From Clostridia bacterium (GTDB lineage Bacteria > Bacillota > Clostridia > TANB77 > CAG-508), in NCBI GenBank assembly GCA_017456555.1, contig JAFTJF010000001.1:62001-126000 (forward strand): a DNA stretch of 64,000 nucleotides, written 5' to 3'. How positions within the stretch are numbered: the stretch's first letter is position 1; each line of letters begins with the position of its first letter. The notes under the pieces are model-generated. The model was not told the DNA's origin and ran no database searches. It saw only the letters and a list, made by a program, of their open reading frames with translations. Position numbers and translations under genes: made by a program. This document shows, in pieces, positions 34,320-47,485 of this stretch.

Positions 34320-34724
34320 TCACTTTGTTTTTAATGTTCTTTTTATAAAATTTATAATTTTTTTGAAAAAACTTTCATTTTCTTCTAAAACAATACTTTT
34401 TTCTTCTATCTCTGCTTCTGTTTTTATTTCAGATTGATTTGACAAATCTTTAAATAACATTCCATTAAATGCTTCTTTTTCTTGCTCATTAGATAAATAT
34501 GTTTTATAAACATATGCAAGCATATCATATGTTTCTGGTAAAAAGTTTTGTTCTTCTAATTGCTTTGTTTCATCAAATTTAAAATTATAATACATATCAT
34601 GTTCTTGATATATTGTTTCTATAAAATCTGATTCTATTTTATTAAATTCCTCATCTGGAATATATTTAAAAACTTCTAACATTTCTGTACATACTTTAGA
34701 AAAATTATTTTCTTTAATGTTCAT
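34320..34724 (-). CDS. Acidic protein of unknown function
   Basis: 134 residues, helical, strongly acidic with a basic C-terminal patch (KKIINFIKRTLKTK) that could be amphipathic. No family recognised. It lies 10 bases downstream of the kinase-fold gene on the same strand, so the two are probably one operon and may work together. Confidence 0.55.
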   Translation of the reverse strand: MNIKENNFSKVCTEMLEVFKYIPDEEFNKIESDFIETIYQEHDMYYNFKFDETKQLEEQNFLPETYDMLAYVYKTYLSNEQEKEAFNGMLFKDLSNQSEIKTEAEIEEKSIVLEENESFFKKIINFIKRTLKTK

Positions 34725-34734
34725 TTCTTATCTC

Positions 34735-35955
34735 CTATCTTGTTGTAAATGGATCTTCTAAATCTATTGAGCTTGTTGATTGTAAGTTTTGTTTTGAATC
34801 TCGACCTACGTTATTATTTGCTTTTTCTTGCTCAAATTCTCCTACTTCAATTTCTTCCACAGTTAAAGTTGTAGACTTAAATTCGTCTATAGTTTCTGTT
34901 ACAAGTGCTTTATCGTCTGCTGATTTTCTTTCTCTTCTTTCTTGTATTTTAGAACGTACAAATTCAGCAATTCTATCAATAGCTTTTATATTTGTTTTTT
35001 GTGCAATTTGAATTGCTATTTCTTTTATACTATATGGACTTTTTATATCTGATGTATTTCTTCCATATCTATATCTTTGCTCTTGAGTATATCTTTGTTG
35101 TATTATTTGCCTTTCATTTTTTAACAATTCACTAAAACATTTACTTGCAGCTGTTAAATCACCTTTTTCTCTTTGATAATTCATCTCGTATTTTAATAAT
35201 TTACTACTTTTTTTAATAAATGATTCAAAATAAATTTTATCATTTGTGTAATCTCCTTTTAACAATTCCCTTGGAACATAATTAACATTTGGAGCTTCAC
35301 CGTTTAACATTTTTTGTTTCAATTCTGGTGTTAAAAATAGCATATCTTCATAGTCTATAACAAACAGATTTCCATTATATTCTGGAAAATCTATATTAGC
35401 AGATTCATTAACATCAGTTTGATTTGGATATATTGATTTAAAATCCATTTTTCCATCAACAAAACCCAAATTTTCTTCTTTTATATCCAACCATAATCCA
35501 CCAGCATCTCTAACCAAATTGTACATTTCTTGAGTCAAGTTCTCTGGTACCTTTTCTGTTTTGGCTCTTTGAGATACATATAATCCTAAATCTGTTCCTT
35601 GATCAAATCGTTCATATTTTTTCAAATCTTGTTTATAAACTGGCGCTATTCTATAAGGATTTTCATATACTTTTTCAGTTGTATTTCCTATTTTTATAAC
35701 AGCGTCTCCTACACCAATACAAGAAAATCTTTGCCCAAATCCTAAGTAGTCAACATCTTCTAAATTCAAATTTTGGGCAGAAGCTAATTTTTCTATTTGC
35801 TCTAATATAGCCTCATAATCTTGCTCATCAATTTTTCTAGCTCTTGAACCTACAAAAAATTCTTCTAAAAAATATCTTTTCATAGTATCAGCTGAAAATT
35901 CACCATATTTTTTAATTATTAATTTTGATATTTTATCGTTTGCTTGTATACCCAT
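34735..35955 (-). CDS. Protein with a kinase-like fold, unknown target
   Basis: 406 residues. A protein-kinase/aminoglycoside-phosphotransferase pattern can be read: a glycine-loop-like LGFGQRFSCIGVG (71-83) followed by AVIK with Lys88, a catalytic-loop-like WLDIKEENLGF (Asp157, Lys159, Asn162) and a metal-binding-like VIDYED (Asp201). These are in the right order and spacing for a small kinase of this superfamily. The C-terminal 150 residues are charged and helical, with Arg/Lys- and Glu-rich stretches. The fold is an inference from motifs; activity and target are unknown. It is followed closely by the 34320-34724 gene. Confidence 0.5.
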   Translation of the reverse strand: MGIQANDKISKLIIKKYGEFSADTMKRYFLEEFFVGSRARKIDEQDYEAILEQIEKLASAQNLNLEDVDYLGFGQRFSCIGVGDAVIKIGNTTEKVYENPYRIAPVYKQDLKKYERFDQGTDLGLYVSQRAKTEKVPENLTQEMYNLVRDAGGLWLDIKEENLGFVDGKMDFKSIYPNQTDVNESANIDFPEYNGNLFVIDYEDMLFLTPELKQKMLNGEAPNVNYVPRELLKGDYTNDKIYFESFIKKSSKLLKYEMNYQREKGDLTAASKCFSELLKNERQIIQQRYTQEQRYRYGRNTSDIKSPYSIKEIAIQIAQKTNIKAIDRIAEFVRSKIQERRERKSADDKALVTETIDEFKSTTLTVEEIEVGEFEQEKANNNVGRDSKQNLQSTSSIDLEDPFTTR

Positions 35956-39361: not shown

Positions 39362-39427
39362 TCTTTTTTCGCAAAAAGAATATCTCATTTGTGTGACAAA
39401 AAGTGACACATTTTTACAAATATAAAA

Positions 39428-39449
39428 AAGGTAGAATTTCTTCTACCTT
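39428..39449 (-). terminator. Terminator of the ADA-SLOG gene
   Basis: Nine-bp stem AAGGTAGAA/TTCTACCTT with a 4-base loop, followed on the minus strand by a T6 run. Confidence 0.85.
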
Positions 39450-39469
39450 CTCTATTAACTCAATATATA

Positions 39470-41995
39470 TTAGTTATCTAAATCCTCAATTTTTATTTCT
39501 GGATAATCTGCAAAAATTGCTCCTGCTAAATCATCTTTTACTTTAAATTCTTTTACATATCCACCAAGTGAATTTGCTTTATCTTTTAAAGCTTCTACAT
39601 CAGAATTTACATATATTTTAGCTTTTCCTTTTCCATTTTTAGCTTCTTGAACTAAGTTTGAAACTGGTGAGTTACCATCAAAAGCAACTACTATTGAATT
39701 TCTTCTTTCAAAAATTTCATAGTTAAAACTTTTATAAATTCCCATTTCTTCTCTTTCTGTTGAAATTCTAATTCCATTAATATTTTCTTTTAATAAATTA
39801 TCAACTTCTTCAGCAGAAACTTCTTTTGGAACAATTGCACTAATTTCAAAGTTTTTATTTAACTCTCTTGCAGCATCTAAAACAGCTTTTTCATAACCAT
39901 TTACTTTATGACCAACTACAAAATAAACTTTTTCATCATCTAGATTTTCAACTAATCTTCTTATTGCTTTTCTTCCATTTTCGTCAAGTACTGTTTCTCT
40001 ATCTTTAGCATTAAAGCTTCCTCCAGCAATAACAATTGGAATTTTATTTTCAGGAAGAGTTTTAATTTTTCCTTTAAGTTTAGATTCAGAATCTAATTTG
40101 TTACTGATTCTCATTTCTACAGTATTTTCTTTGCTTGCTTCAATATTTTTTTGTTCTAATTCTAAAACTGCTTCTCTTATTGTTCTTCCTGCCAAGAATT
40201 CTTCAAATCTTTTTGATTTTTCTTCAAAATATTTTTTTCTATCTTCGATAATTTCATCTTCAACTTTTCTCATTTTAGCAAAATCATCATCATCTAATCC
40301 TAATAAGTTATGAAGAGCTAATTGTTCATCAATTGTATCACTTCCATAGAATCCACATCCATCTGTTCCTTGAACACATCTTACTCCTGCAGCTAAATAT
40401 TGTTTTAAAGGATGCCTTTCAATATCTGTTAAATTGTTTAATCTAACATTTGATGTTAATTGGAATTCTAATATTGCATTTGTTTTAACCATTTCTTTCA
40501 TTAAGTCTTTACCTTCTTTAGTATTTAGGTCTGCTGTATATAATCCATGACCTAATCTAAATCTTGGCATTTTTTGTCCTGGTTTTAATGCATCTTTTAT
40601 ACATTCAATTGATTTTGCAACATTATCTCTTAAGCAATCATTTTCACCAGCATGAATTCTAACTGTAAATCCTTCATCTTCTGTCACAGCATATTGAACT
40701 AATTCATCTATTGCTGGTTTTAAATCTGCTATATCATTTATTTCTTCACCAATAAAATCACTACCTACAACATATGGGCTTTTAGCAACAGCTTTTAATA
40801 CATCTATATTTTCTCTTAAATAATTACTTGCTGTTTTTTGATCTCTTATTATTGTTAGAGGAACTCTTCTTAAACCAACTAATAATCTAATTGAAACTCC
40901 TGTTTCAGCTTCGATTTTAGGAAATAATTCATGAACTTCTTCTAATAATTTTATTGCTGGTTCTCCAGCTTTTGTTAAATCTGTATCTGTTATTTCTGTA
41001 TATGAAATATGTTGTTTTTGATATTCTCTAGCAATCCATAAATATTTGTCTTGTCTTAAGCTATTGTTTTCATATGGACTTCCTGTTTTTTTATCTTCTA
41101 ATATTTTTTTAACATAAGCTACAATATCTTTTTCTGGAATTGCTTCTATTTTTTTAGTTGTTAATTTAATTTTTTCTTCAGAAATTTTAGCTTTACAAAA
41201 TACATATCTATAAATATAAACTTTTTCTAAGTTTGTAAATACTGATTGACCATCTTTTAATAATGCTAAACTACTTCTAATTTTTGAAATATTTTCTTCT
41301 GCATTTTCTGGGTTATTTAAAATTAAATCAGCAAAATTTATAAAAGTATTATCATCTATTTTTCTTGTTAAATATTTTCCTTCTAAACCTGAATTTTCAT
41401 ATTCTTTTTCAACAGGTTTTCTAGCTTCCATAACAACTTTTTCTTGTTTATCTGTTAATTTTAAATCTAATTTTTTTACATAATATAATGGATATTTTGC
41501 TTGGTGAACAATACCAAGAGCGATTAACACATCTGGTGTTAAATTTGCATTCATATGTGTATGTAAATCCGTTTTAAATTTTGATTTTTTGAAAATATAA
41601 GATTTAACAATTGTTTTCTTGATATCAAATTTATAATCTTTTGTTTGAGACATTAAAGTTTTTGAAATAGCTGGTATTTTAGCTTTTACTTCAATTCTAT
41701 TTTCATAGATATTTGCTATTTTCATACCTGCTAATCTAAAAATATATACATCTTCATTATCTGCATTTATAGAAGCTGGTATTACGCCTTTAATTATTTT
41801 TAATCCATTTTCTGGATCTCTTTCATATTCTAATCCAGAAATTCTAGCTAAATTTGAAATTAAATTTCCACTTTTATGATTAGGAGTTCTTATAATATAT
41901 GTAAGTTCATCTGGTACTTTCCCTCTATATAATTCAACTACAACATCTTTTTCTTTATCCATGTAGAACTTATTAACGTATGTTAATTTTTCCAT
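39470..41995 (-). CDS. Adenosine deaminase-family protein fused to a C-terminal SLOG-like domain
   Basis: About 841 residues, more than twice a normal adenosine deaminase. Parts in order: an N-terminal region of about 140 residues with beta-strand character; an amidohydrolase-type deaminase domain (about 140-610) with metal ligands DLHTHMN (about 143-149), the catalytic HAGEND (448-453), LGHG (481-484) and GTDG (543-546), all intact; and a C-terminal domain (about 650-825) with IPIVIAGGSFNAKDRE, VYFVVGHKVNGYEKAV and SIVVAFDGNSPVSNLVQEA, a layout like the SLOG/LOG/DprA nucleotide-binding Rossmann fold. About 300 residues separate HxH and HAGE, roughly 100 more than in typical ADA. Substrate and ligand are unknown. 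A GTG at 42007 lies too close to the GGAG site, so I choose the ATG at 41995 (spacing about 13). Own promoter and terminator. Confidence 0.8.
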   Translation of the reverse strand: MEKLTYVNKFYMDKEKDVVVELYRGKVPDELTYIIRTPNHKSGNLISNLARISGLEYERDPENGLKIIKGVIPASINADNEDVYIFRLAGMKIANIYENRIEVKAKIPAISKTLMSQTKDYKFDIKKTIVKSYIFKKSKFKTDLHTHMNANLTPDVLIALGIVHQAKYPLYYVKKLDLKLTDKQEKVVMEARKPVEKEYENSGLEGKYLTRKIDDNTFINFADLILNNPENAEENISKIRSSLALLKDGQSVFTNLEKVYIYRYVFCKAKISEEKIKLTTKKIEAIPEKDIVAYVKKILEDKKTGSPYENNSLRQDKYLWIAREYQKQHISYTEITDTDLTKAGEPAIKLLEEVHELFPKIEAETGVSIRLLVGLRRVPLTIIRDQKTASNYLRENIDVLKAVAKSPYVVGSDFIGEEINDIADLKPAIDELVQYAVTEDEGFTVRIHAGENDCLRDNVAKSIECIKDALKPGQKMPRFRLGHGLYTADLNTKEGKDLMKEMVKTNAILEFQLTSNVRLNNLTDIERHPLKQYLAAGVRCVQGTDGCGFYGSDTIDEQLALHNLLGLDDDDFAKMRKVEDEIIEDRKKYFEEKSKRFEEFLAGRTIREAVLELEQKNIEASKENTVEMRISNKLDSESKLKGKIKTLPENKIPIVIAGGSFNAKDRETVLDENGRKAIRRLVENLDDEKVYFVVGHKVNGYEKAVLDAARELNKNFEISAIVPKEVSAEEVDNLLKENINGIRISTEREEMGIYKSFNYEIFERRNSIVVAFDGNSPVSNLVQEAKNGKGKAKIYVNSDVEALKDKANSLGGYVKEFKVKDDLAGAIFADYPEIKIEDLDN

Positions 41996-42046: not shown

Positions 42047-42075
42047 ATTATAACAGAAAAAGCGCACCATTTCAA
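42047..42075 (-). promoter_or_regulatory. Promoter of the ADA-SLOG gene
   Basis: TTGAAA (42070-42075) and TATAAT (42047-42052), spacing exactly 17. Confidence 0.75.
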
Positions 42076-44069: not shown

Positions 44070-44828
44070 TTATAGTTTAAAGAAAATCTTTTTCTTGTTT
44101 GAGTCTTCTTTAGTATCTGCAGCCTCAATCATCAAGTTTTCTTTTTGTTCTTTTTCTAATCTGTTTGATATAGTCAACATATTTTCATCAATACTATTTA
44201 TTATTTTTGCATATTTCACTAAATTGTTAGACTCATTTTTTGTTATTTTTGCATTTTTGTATTTTAACTTATGTTCTAAACTTGCCCAGAAATCCATTCC
44301 TAAAGTACGAAGTTGAATTTCAACTTTCACATACATAATTCCTGAAGAAAAATTAACAGGAACTTCAGCAATTAAGTGATAACTCATATAACCACTTTTC
44401 TTAGGCTTCTTTAAGTAATCTTTTCTATTTAATATTCTTATGTCTTGAAAATCTTCAATAATTTCCACTAATCTATAAACATCTTTTTTGAAATTACAAA
44501 CAATTCTAATTCCAGCAATGTCATTTATCTCTTGAAACATGTTTCCATATGTTGGAGCTAAATTCTTTCTTCTTAATTTTTCTAGAATACTTTCAGGTTT
44601 CTTAATTCTTGTAGAAATATATTCTATCGGTTCATAATCTGAAAAAATTTTAAGTTCATCTTGCAAAATTTCCATTTTTGTTTTTATTTCTTTTAGTGCA
44701 GAATTATATAAAAACATCATTTTTTGAAAATTTTGATCATTTATATCTATTGTTTCACTATTAACTAAATTATTTTCCATTTTTATTAAATACTCGTTAT
44801 TATCACTCGTACTTTCATTTTCAATCAT
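44070..44828 (-). CDS. Small alarmone synthetase, (p)ppGpp synthase (RelQ/RelP-type)
   Basis: 252 residues with only the RelA/SpoT synthetase domain. Visible are ISTRIKKPESILEKLRRK (about residues 67-84, ATP-binding basic segment), NDIAGIRIVC (Asp about 98), KKSGYMSYHLIAE and VEIQLRTLGMDFWASLEHKLKYK (catalytic Glu-x-Gln region). No HD hydrolase, TGS or ACT domains, so it is a synthase-only enzyme that transfers pyrophosphate from ATP to GDP/GTP. Which small class (RelP or RelQ) cannot be decided. It lies in a region with several other nucleotide enzymes. Confidence 0.88.
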   Translation of the reverse strand: MIENESTSDNNEYLIKMENNLVNSETIDINDQNFQKMMFLYNSALKEIKTKMEILQDELKIFSDYEPIEYISTRIKKPESILEKLRRKNLAPTYGNMFQEINDIAGIRIVCNFKKDVYRLVEIIEDFQDIRILNRKDYLKKPKKSGYMSYHLIAEVPVNFSSGIMYVKVEIQLRTLGMDFWASLEHKLKYKNAKITKNESNNLVKYAKIINSIDENMLTISNRLEKEQKENLMIEAADTKEDSNKKKIFFKL

Positions 44829-46867: not shown

Positions 46868-47485
46868 TTACTCTTCCGAATCAAAAACACTGCTTGCAAT
46901 AAAATCAACAACTTTACTATCTTTGTTTGCATCATTTCTTTTTGTACTATGTTTTTCTTCCTCAGTTAGTTCTACTAAATATTTATTAAATTCTGGTATT
47001 ATTGCAATTGAATCTAGTGGATAACCTGGATTTCTCATATTTGAAGCTTTATCAACAAAATAAAAATGACTTTTACTCCAAGTGTGTTCTTTTGCTCCAT
47101 TTGGTCCATACACAACCATTCCATAAACCCATTTAGCTGTTAGTTTTCCACCATTTTGTTTTACTAAATTTGTATAATATTCAATCATTTCTTCATCTGA
47201 TAATTCTTTTCCGTTTACTCTTCTTACATGAGTTCCTGGTTGTTTTTCTTCTGGTAATTCTTCAATAAATAAAGAATTATCCATTCCAATAGAAACAATT
47301 CCAGTAGCATCATAATATGCTTTTGCTTTTATATATGCATTTTCTATACAGTTTTTTCCATTTTCTTCTGGATTTAAATTTAAATCTAAATCTTTCAAAG
47401 TTATTAATTCTATATTTTTCTTTTTTAATTCTTCAGCATATTTTCTAACTTTTGCTGGATTTGTTGTTGCAAATAAAACTTTCAT
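46868..47485 (-). CDS. HAM1/RdgB-like non-canonical purine NTP pyrophosphatase (divergent)
   Basis: 205 residues. The N-terminal VLFATTNPAKVRKYAEEL (T/SxNxxK, residues 3-20) and GMDNSLFIEELP (in place of SDDSGL) segments match the HAM1 fold. It is more diverged than the canonical copy at 57525-58097: it has HVRRVNGKELSD where FSARYAG-type residues are expected. Probably cleans up a nucleotide pool, perhaps with a different substrate. Twelve bases from the DUF2207-like gene start side. Confidence 0.75.
   Translation of the reverse strand: MKVLFATTNPAKVRKYAEELKKKNIELITLKDLDLNLNPEENGKNCIENAYIKAKAYYDATGIVSIGMDNSLFIEELPEEKQPGTHVRRVNGKELSDEEMIEYYTNLVKQNGGKLTAKWVYGMVVYGPNGAKEHTWSKSHFYFVDKASNMRNPGYPLDSIAIIPEFNKYLVELTEEEKHSTKRNDANKDSKVVDFIASSVFDSEE

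What the first reader, a model, noticed from the sequence alone, without database searches (positions are those of the whole stretch)
39470..41995. Oversized adenosine deaminase fused to a SLOG-like nucleotide-binding domain
The deaminase core keeps all catalytic residues (HTHMN, HAGE, GHG, GTDG) but has about 100 extra residues between HxH and HAGE, an extra 140-residue N-terminus and a C-terminal Rossmann domain (AGGSFNAK, GHKVNGYEKA, VVAFDGNSPVSN) that looks like SLOG/LOG/DprA. Known defence enzymes pair deaminases with nucleotide sensors (Cad1 CARF-ADA) or with an ATPase (RADAR). An ADA-SLOG fusion could deaminate ATP/adenosine under control of a nucleotide ligand. It sits alone with its own promoter, upstream palindrome and terminator. 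Catalytic motifs are seen; SLOG identity and a signalling or defence role are inference.
Basis: partly seen in the sequence, partly recalled or inferred. Interest (0 to 1): 0.72.

Follow-up and report, generated by a model that had tools for sequence, protein, structure and literature searches.

The report
Mobile adenosine-deaminase gene with nucleotide-sensor domain
A gut Clostridia bacterium carries a patchily spread gene whose product joins an adenosine-deaminase-type enzyme to a probable SLOG-type nucleotide-binding domain; its layout resembles bacterial antiviral enzymes that turn ATP into toxic ITP, but its function has not been tested.

Summary
The ORF is real (window 39470-41995, minus strand, 841 aa). 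Its adenosine-deaminase core is certain (Pfam 65.7 bits); zinc and catalytic residues are invariant in the aligned relatives (62 of 62; HxH 60 of 60). The Asp296 position of mouse ADA is Gly in 62 of 62 and the Asp19 position is never acidic; the ATP deaminase Cad1 is changed at the same two positions. The C-terminal domain is probably SLOG, by a two-step chain: window family to distant fusions, and those to Pfam 'SLOG in TRPM' models, all below cut-off. No structure could be predicted. The gene is accessory and mobile: 33 of 53 genus genomes, 20 context groups in 64 loci, gene tree crossing genera and families. No CARF domain or RADAR model match and no tie to ThsB-type TIR genes. Best reading: a ligand-gated adenine-nucleotide deaminase acting as a one-gene conflict effector; ligand, substrate and defence role are inference. 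Four of five distant relatives precede a small partner protein that in the genus also follows very diverse other proteins.

The parts
39470..41995 (-). ADA-SLOG fusion gene, 841 aa, ATG start at 41995
   Evidence: Pfam A_deaminase 65.7 bits; 33 of 53 genus genomes hit
41576..41995 (-). N-terminal extension, residues 1-140, no recognised family
40196..41575 (-). adenosine deaminase-type core, about residues 141-600 (H145, H147, H448, E451, H483, D545)
   Evidence: end approximate
41051..41470 (-). insertion inside the deaminase core between HxH and HAGE, about residues 176-315
   Evidence: alignment A1; boundaries approximate
41549..41551 (-). Asn149, position of mouse ADA Asp19 (ribose contact); N, Y, H, T or A in relatives, never acidic
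40358..40360 (-). Gly546, position of mouse ADA Asp296; Gly in 62 of 62 relatives
39473..40090 (-). C-terminal SLOG-like domain, residues 636-841
39668..39679 (-). DGNS loop, residues 773-776, at the place of the GGG loop of distant relatives (IGGG in L177)
   Evidence: alignments A1 and A6
42047..42075 (-). promoter-like site TTGAAA-17-TATAAT with TG before the -10
   Evidence: consensus match only, no regional excess over shuffles
39422..39455 (-). intrinsic-terminator-like hairpin after the stop
   Evidence: z -4.6; not listed by the scan

Best explanation
The gene encodes a one-protein, ligand-gated purine-nucleotide deaminase. The C-terminal SLOG-type domain binds a signal nucleotide. The signal is relayed to the zinc deaminase core, which converts an adenine nucleotide (most likely ATP or dATP rather than free adenosine) to its inosine form. 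The N-terminal extension and the core insertion probably build an oligomer, as in RdrB. The resulting inosine nucleotides would arrest growth, so the gene most likely serves as a mobile one-gene stress or anti-phage effector. Shown: the deaminase core and its intact zinc site, replacement of both adenosine-contact aspartates, homology of the C-terminal domain to that of distant fusions which in turn resemble SLOG models, and an accessory, mobile distribution. Inferred: SLOG fold, nucleotide binding, allosteric gating, ATP as substrate, oligomer, toxicity, defence role.
For: Deaminase core: Pfam 65.7 bits. Zinc and catalytic residues invariant in 62 of 62 (60 of 60 for HxH). Asp296 position Gly in 62 of 62 and Asp19 position never acidic. 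TaqCad1, which deaminates ATP and adenosine only weakly, is also substituted at exactly these two positions (PMC12669630). Layout resembles RdrB: N-terminal extension, insertion dividing the core, H498/E501/H530 there against H448/E451/H483 here (PMC9994260). The only defence model matched is CARF_ADA (31 bits for the window protein, 59.8 for L177, 38.2 for L060). SLOG chain. Mobile accessory gene: 33 of 53 genus, 79 of 287 order and 12 of 391 class genomes; 20 context groups among 64 loci; gene tree mixes genera and places another family's sequences inside this one's. Eighteen of 53 genus genomes, 12 of the 28 more complete ones, have no A_deaminase match at all, so the activity is dispensable.
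Against: No structure and no biochemistry. The SLOG models stay below gathering score, and profile-profile comparison of the window type alone gave nothing (best SLOG family ranked 11 of 66). Restoring the two aspartates in TaqCad1 did not rescue adenosine activity, so these residues alone do not fix substrate choice. The Asp19 position is non-Asp in 3 of 5 plain bacterial controls, and the Asp296 position is Asn in 1 of 5. PDB sequence ranking puts plain ADAs above Cad1. ThsB-type TIR genes occur in 3 of the 33 genus genomes with the protein and 2 of the 20 without. Window-type neighbours look mostly like housekeeping genes by eye. Of four window neighbours scanned with PADLOC, two matched: the HD gene to Cas3-HD models (27.6 bits, probably generic HD) and the alarmone synthetase to the candidate model PDC-S33 (88.1 bits). 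No fusion in plasmids, phages or viral contigs.
Confidence: 0.42

Rival explanations
1. An allosterically regulated purine-salvage deaminase (adenosine, AMP or an N6-modified adenine nucleotide): metabolic, with the SLOG domain as a feedback sensor, spread by transfer because it is useful in the gut.
For: It is the only A_deaminase match in its genome. None of the 33 genus genomes with the protein has a full-length plain ADA, while 3 of the 20 without it do (P about 0.05 by hand, weak; G429, which has the protein, also has two atypical ADA-like frames of 418 and 425 aa). The window context holds nucleotide-related genes: alarmone synthetase and isochorismatase (Pfam), a dCMP deaminase-like and a Ham1/RdgB-like ORF (by eye).
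Against: Patchy, in many contexts, and absent with no A_deaminase substitute from 18 of 53 genomes. Adenosine-contact aspartates lost. Large insertion and extension are not needed for salvage (inference).
Confidence: 0.27
2. A secreted or injected effector: the distant branch is one of many cargo proteins encoded upstream of a constant ~150 aa partner, and the window type is a derived cargo without the partner.
For: Four of five distant relatives (L059, L060, L061 and the two-piece L062; not L177, by eye) have the partner directly downstream, overlapping or within 2 bases. The partner family has 1-14 matches in each of 53 of 53 genus genomes. At 28 of 30 loci an upstream ORF lies within 200 bases, in 27 clusters, including RelA_SpoT, PHP, amidoligase and transglutaminase-like proteins.
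Against: A profile of the partner finds no copy next to any of the 64 window-type loci; within seven genes it finds one in three of them, five or six genes away (window, L067, L007). No secretion signal was tested.
Confidence: 0.17
3. A two-step enzyme: the deaminase makes an inosine nucleotide and the SLOG domain, acting like a LOG phosphoribohydrolase, cleaves the base or makes a signal from it.
For: LOG-type members of the SLOG superfamily are enzymes (recalled); distant relatives keep a GGG loop.
Against: The window type has DGNS at that loop, not the LOG motif PGGxGTxxE (recalled; seen in L137).
Confidence: 0.07

Closest known systems
Cad1 / CARF-ADA (type III CRISPR adenosine deaminase)
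   Same: Nucleotide-sensor domain fused to a zinc ADA core; both adenosine-binding aspartates replaced; the only defence model matched.
   Different: No CARF domain: the match covers model positions 260-555 of 605, and Cad1's CARF is N-terminal. The sensor here is C-terminal and SLOG-like. No CRISPR locus was looked for beyond the neighbours scanned; the adjacent HD gene matches Cas3-HD models weakly (27.6 bits).
RADAR RdrB
   Same: N-terminal extension, insertion dividing the core and similar spacing of zinc and catalytic residues.
   Different: No RdrB model among the matches at E up to 10 (that the library holds an RdrB model is recalled), no RdrA among the neighbours scanned; a C-terminal SLOG domain is not mentioned in the RdrB passages read.
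Thoeris ThsA (SIR2-SLOG)
   Same: Effector enzyme domain joined to a SLOG-type domain that senses a nucleotide.
   Different: Deaminase in place of SIR2; no ThsB beside it in the window, and ThsB-type TIR genes do not track it.
Plain adenosine deaminase (Add, PF00962)
   Same: Same catalytic core and zinc site.
   Different: 841 aa against 318-355 aa in four annotated controls; Asp296 position Gly; extra parts at both ends and inside.

Membership tests
A_deaminase (PF00962) | score above curated cut-off | tested here: met
   65.7 bits, cut-off 27
A_deaminase (PF00962) | zinc/catalytic residues HxH, H, E, H, D | tested here: met
   62 of 62 and, for HxH, 60 of 60
Adenosine deaminase, equivalog (NCBIfam) | score above equivalog cut-off | tested here: not met
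   best 50.6 bits, cut-off 426
SLOG superfamily | recognised by a SLOG Pfam model above gathering score | tested here: not met
   window domain no SLOG hit; relatives at best 20.1 bits to LSDAT_prok, cut-off 25.4
SLOG superfamily | homology to SLOG through intermediates | tested here: inconclusive
   first step strong, second step sub-threshold but SLOG models rank first for 3 of 5 relatives; hhalign not significant
SLOG superfamily | Rossmann-like SLOG fold | not testable with these tools
   structure prediction switched off
Cad1 / CARF-ADA | N-terminal CARF domain | tested here: not met
   CARF_ADA match covers only model positions 260-555 of 605
Cad1 / CARF-ADA | ATP-to-ITP activity on cyclic oligoadenylate | not testable with these tools
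   needs assay
RADAR | RdrA ATPase partner gene | tested here: not met
   window neighbours scanned (five by Pfam, four by PADLOC) are not RdrA; at other loci only clustering was done, and no neighbour family is shared across context groups by the grouping
RADAR | RdrB model match | tested here: not met
   only CARF_ADA matched in PADLOC at E up to 10; presence of an RdrB model in the library is recalled, not checked
Thoeris | adjacent or co-occurring ThsB TIR gene | tested here: not met
   5 of 53 genomes have one, 3 of them with the protein

The most novel reading that the evidence does not exclude
A third, CRISPR-independent and partner-free branch of ATP-to-ITP immunity: one mobile protein in which a SLOG-type receptor directly gates a nucleotide deaminase, with an ancestral branch deployed as cargo beside a small partner protein shared by a large polymorphic effector repertoire of gut Clostridia.
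Probability: 0.28. Interest if true: 0.82.

Novelty: new variant of a known kind. Interest (0 to 1): 0.6.

Why it matters
If the reading is right, nucleotide-pool poisoning by ATP deamination has been coupled to a different class of nucleotide receptor (SLOG instead of CARF or an ATPase), in one gene, in gut bacteria known here mainly from metagenome assemblies. It would give a compact system for studying how a Rossmann-type sensor switches an ADA core, and a route to an unknown signal nucleotide. The prediction is sharp: little or no adenosine activity, ligand-dependent ATP or dATP activity.

Tried and rejected
Plasmid, phage and viral-contig searches returned no fusion, only plain ADA-like matches or nothing. 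PDB sequence search with the C-terminal profile gave only noise. hhalign of the window-type C-terminal profile against LOG, LDcluster4-like, DprA and a single-sequence LSDAT profile plus 62 background clusters gave no significant match; with distant members or all members LSDAT ranked first of 66, at probabilities of 4% and 2%. The idea that a ThsB-type TIR makes the signal was tested and not supported. Special kinship with Cad1 was looked for in PDB ranking: plain ADAs rank first for the window protein and for L177, so only the active-site and layout parallels are claimed. The 'upstream palindrome' was rejected as part of the gene. Of eight control sequences, two (L183, L185) were mis-extracted neighbouring kinases and were dropped; L186 is atypical and not among the five plain controls. 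In one search several LDcluster4-like sequences were read from wrong frames; one search kept the 10 that carry the expected motif.

Full report
What is there. The reading frame at window 39470-41995 (minus strand) encodes 841 residues. Pfam recognises only the adenosine deaminase core (A_deaminase, 65.7 bits, cut-off 27; the one other listing, DUF2480, is noise at E 0.037). The NCBIfam adenosine-deaminase equivalog models match far below cut-off (best 50.6 bits of 426). PADLOC matches only CARF_ADA, 31 bits, over model positions 260-555. The solved structures matched best are plain adenosine deaminases; the CRISPR-associated deaminase entry 9ebt is at E 0.097. There is a promoter-like site and a terminator-like hairpin. 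The upstream palindrome lies at the stop of the preceding HD-domain gene and is most simply that gene's terminator.

Spread. The protein is found in 33 of 53 genomes of its genus (G416 has only the distant type and G418 only a 45-residue fragment), in 79 of 287 of its order, and in 2 of 398 in an even draw of its phylum, the window's own genome included. The C-terminal domain profile finds 13 of 391 genomes of the class; 12 are open frames of 783-869 aa that are ADA fusions, and the thirteenth (E 0.009) is not convincing. Five named contigs came from genome contigs, titled as sheep-rectum and 'Lapin' metagenome assemblies; four of them have the same lengths as contigs of G401, G404, G427 and G433, so they are the same genomes. 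No fusion was found in viral contigs, plasmids or phages (the viral-contig scan reaches close relatives only).

Mobility. Neighbours were clustered in 69 loci with an anchor gene. For 64 window-type loci there are 20 context groups, counting loci that share two or more neighbour families within five genes; 14 of the 20 are single loci, three of which (L007, L123, L063) have six or fewer neighbours to compare. There are 45 distinct immediate neighbour pairs among the 59 loci with both neighbours. The largest group (18 loci) is the window's own context: HD and alarmone-synthetase genes before, a 231-aa ORF and an rpmF-like ORF (by eye) after. Six members from another taxonomic family (f4; L064, L178-L182) mostly have different neighbours by eye. 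A FastTree tree of 61 sequences, rooted on L059, L060 and L177, places genus-g1 sequences in several separate clades (for example L026 and L028 among other genera) and puts the f4 sequences inside the diversity of the window's family (node support 0.963; other deep nodes are weak, one at 0.117). Eighteen of 53 genus genomes have no A_deaminase match at all, 12 of them among the 28 more complete ones. The gene is therefore accessory and horizontally mobile, not core housekeeping.

Active site. In 62 aligned relatives (window protein included) H448, E451, H483 and D545 are invariant, as are H145 and H147 in the 60 rows that reach that region. The Asp296 position of mouse ADA is Gly in 62 of 62. 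The Asp19 position is N in 50, Y in 7 and H, T or A in 1 each, with two rows not covering it. In five plain bacterial controls the Asp296 position is D in 4 and N in 1; the Asp19 position is D in 2, E in 2 and R in 1, so this second position is less diagnostic. The TaqCad1 paper (PMC12669630, passages and section 8 read) reports substitutions at exactly these two positions, Asn549 and Gly264, in an enzyme that turns ATP into ITP and shows only weak adenosine activity. It also reports that restoring both aspartates did not rescue adenosine activity, so the inference to a nucleotide substrate is suggestive only. The RADAR paper (PMC9994260, passages read) describes an N-terminal extension and an insertion dividing the core of RdrB, with H152, H154, H498, E501 and H530; the window protein has H145, H147, H448, E451 and H483, a closely similar layout.

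C-terminal domain. The window domain alone has no credible Pfam match, and the profile of 38 members finds nothing in the PDB. It does have distant relatives at 21-24% identity in this domain: L059, L060, L061 and the two-piece L062 from the order, and L177 from another family. A profile of window-type domains puts the five distant domains at ranks 1-5 (E 6.6e-16, 5.8e-11, 1.6e-7, 1.3e-6, 1.8e-6) above 1121 background proteins, and a profile of four distant domains finds the window domain at 1.1e-12 (E-values for that small set). Against Pfam, L177 and L062 give LSDAT_prok (SLOG in TRPM, prokaryote) as best match (E 4e-4 and 1.3e-3), L059 gives LSDAT_euk (0.026), L061 lists LSDAT_prok third (0.12), and L060 gives no SLOG model. 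The distant domains carry VTGG-like and GGG loops; the window type has DGNS in place of the second. That these are the SLOG loop positions is my reading by eye. I take SLOG identity as likely (about 0.8), not proven.

How it most likely works. In Cad1, cyclic oligoadenylate binding to CARF switches on ATP deamination and growth arrest (PMC11645235, passages). In ThsA, a SLOG domain binds a cyclic ADP-ribose isomer to activate SIR2 (PMC12948488, passage; PMC11204291, start of abstract in a search listing). By analogy the SLOG domain here would bind a signal nucleotide and gate the deaminase, which would produce inosine nucleotides. The signal source is unknown. ThsB-type TIR genes occur in 5 of 53 genus genomes, 3 with the protein and 2 without, so that signal is not required. 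An alarmone synthetase (RelA_SpoT) lies three genes upstream of the window gene, and its cluster is present in 13 of the loci; it matches a PADLOC candidate defence model, PDC-S33, at 88.1 bits. That makes (p)ppGpp a candidate ligand worth testing, no more. PADLOC was run on four window neighbours and four L060 neighbours only, so a defence-island association of the window type is neither shown nor excluded.

A wider pattern. Four of the five distant relatives (not L177, by eye) are followed directly by a small protein of about 150 aa. This family has 1-14 matches in each of 53 of 53 genus genomes. Of the 30 best loci examined, 28 have an upstream same-strand ORF within 200 bases, in 27 clusters. 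Some of these ORFs are cut by the locus edge, a few are not tightly spaced and may be chance, and the set includes loci used to build the profile. Of 10 upstream ORFs scanned, 5 matched Pfam at E 0.01 or better: RelA_SpoT, PHP, amidoligase, LicD/nucleotidyltransferase-like (below cut-off) and transglutaminase-like. This looks like a polymorphic-effector arrangement with a constant partner. The window holds one such pair at 34320-35955. A profile of the partner finds none beside any of the 64 window-type ADA-SLOG loci.

Novelty. Paper searches for SLOG with adenosine deaminase or deaminase, for ADA fusions and for CARF, RADAR and Cad1 showed no description of an ADA-SLOG fusion in the listings and passages seen. 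The 2015 survey of nucleotide-centric conflict systems, recalled as the place where it might be listed, was not read. I rate it a new variant of a known kind: a sensor-fused ADA-type effector.

Noticed in passing
window 34320-34724 (-) with 34735-35955 (-); loci L216-L245: Family of ~150 aa proteins with a basic C-terminal end, 1-14 matches in each of 53 of 53 genus genomes, lying downstream of very diverse proteins (27 clusters at 28 of 30 loci: RelA_SpoT, PHP, amidoligase, transglutaminase-like and others). Looks like a polymorphic effector repertoire with a constant partner.
   Followed up: partly
L060 15108-17905: About 4.4 and 6.8 kb downstream of the distant ADA-SLOG of G416: an AbiLi-like ATPase (150.5 bits) and a ThsB-like TIR ORF (22.2 bits), suggesting a defence island.
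   Followed up: partly
window 44070-44828 (-): Alarmone synthetase (RelA_SpoT, 115 bits) three genes upstream, matching the PADLOC candidate PDC-S33 at 88.1 bits.
   Followed up: no
L212 (Zymomonas mobilis plasmid pZMOB01): Plasmid cluster annotated SIR2 family protein, non-canonical purine NTP pyrophosphatase and adenosine deaminase side by side.
   Followed up: no
L186 (G429 C24): Two atypical A_deaminase frames of 425 and 418 aa about 5 kb apart, one with HNH, HVGE and SDD motifs, unlike plain ADA and unlike ADA-SLOG.
   Followed up: no
L132 in G097: Frame of at least 839 aa with an LSDAT-type SLOG match and, by eye, a RelA/SpoT-like N-terminal part.
   Followed up: no
window 46868-47485 (-): Ham1/RdgB-like (non-canonical purine NTP pyrophosphatase, by eye) ORF six genes upstream of the ADA-SLOG gene; its cluster is found in 8 of the loci examined.
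   Followed up: no
L062 3875-6800, L065, L066: Broken or split copies of ADA-SLOG genes in G565, G636 and G677, as expected for an accessory gene under turnover.
   Followed up: no
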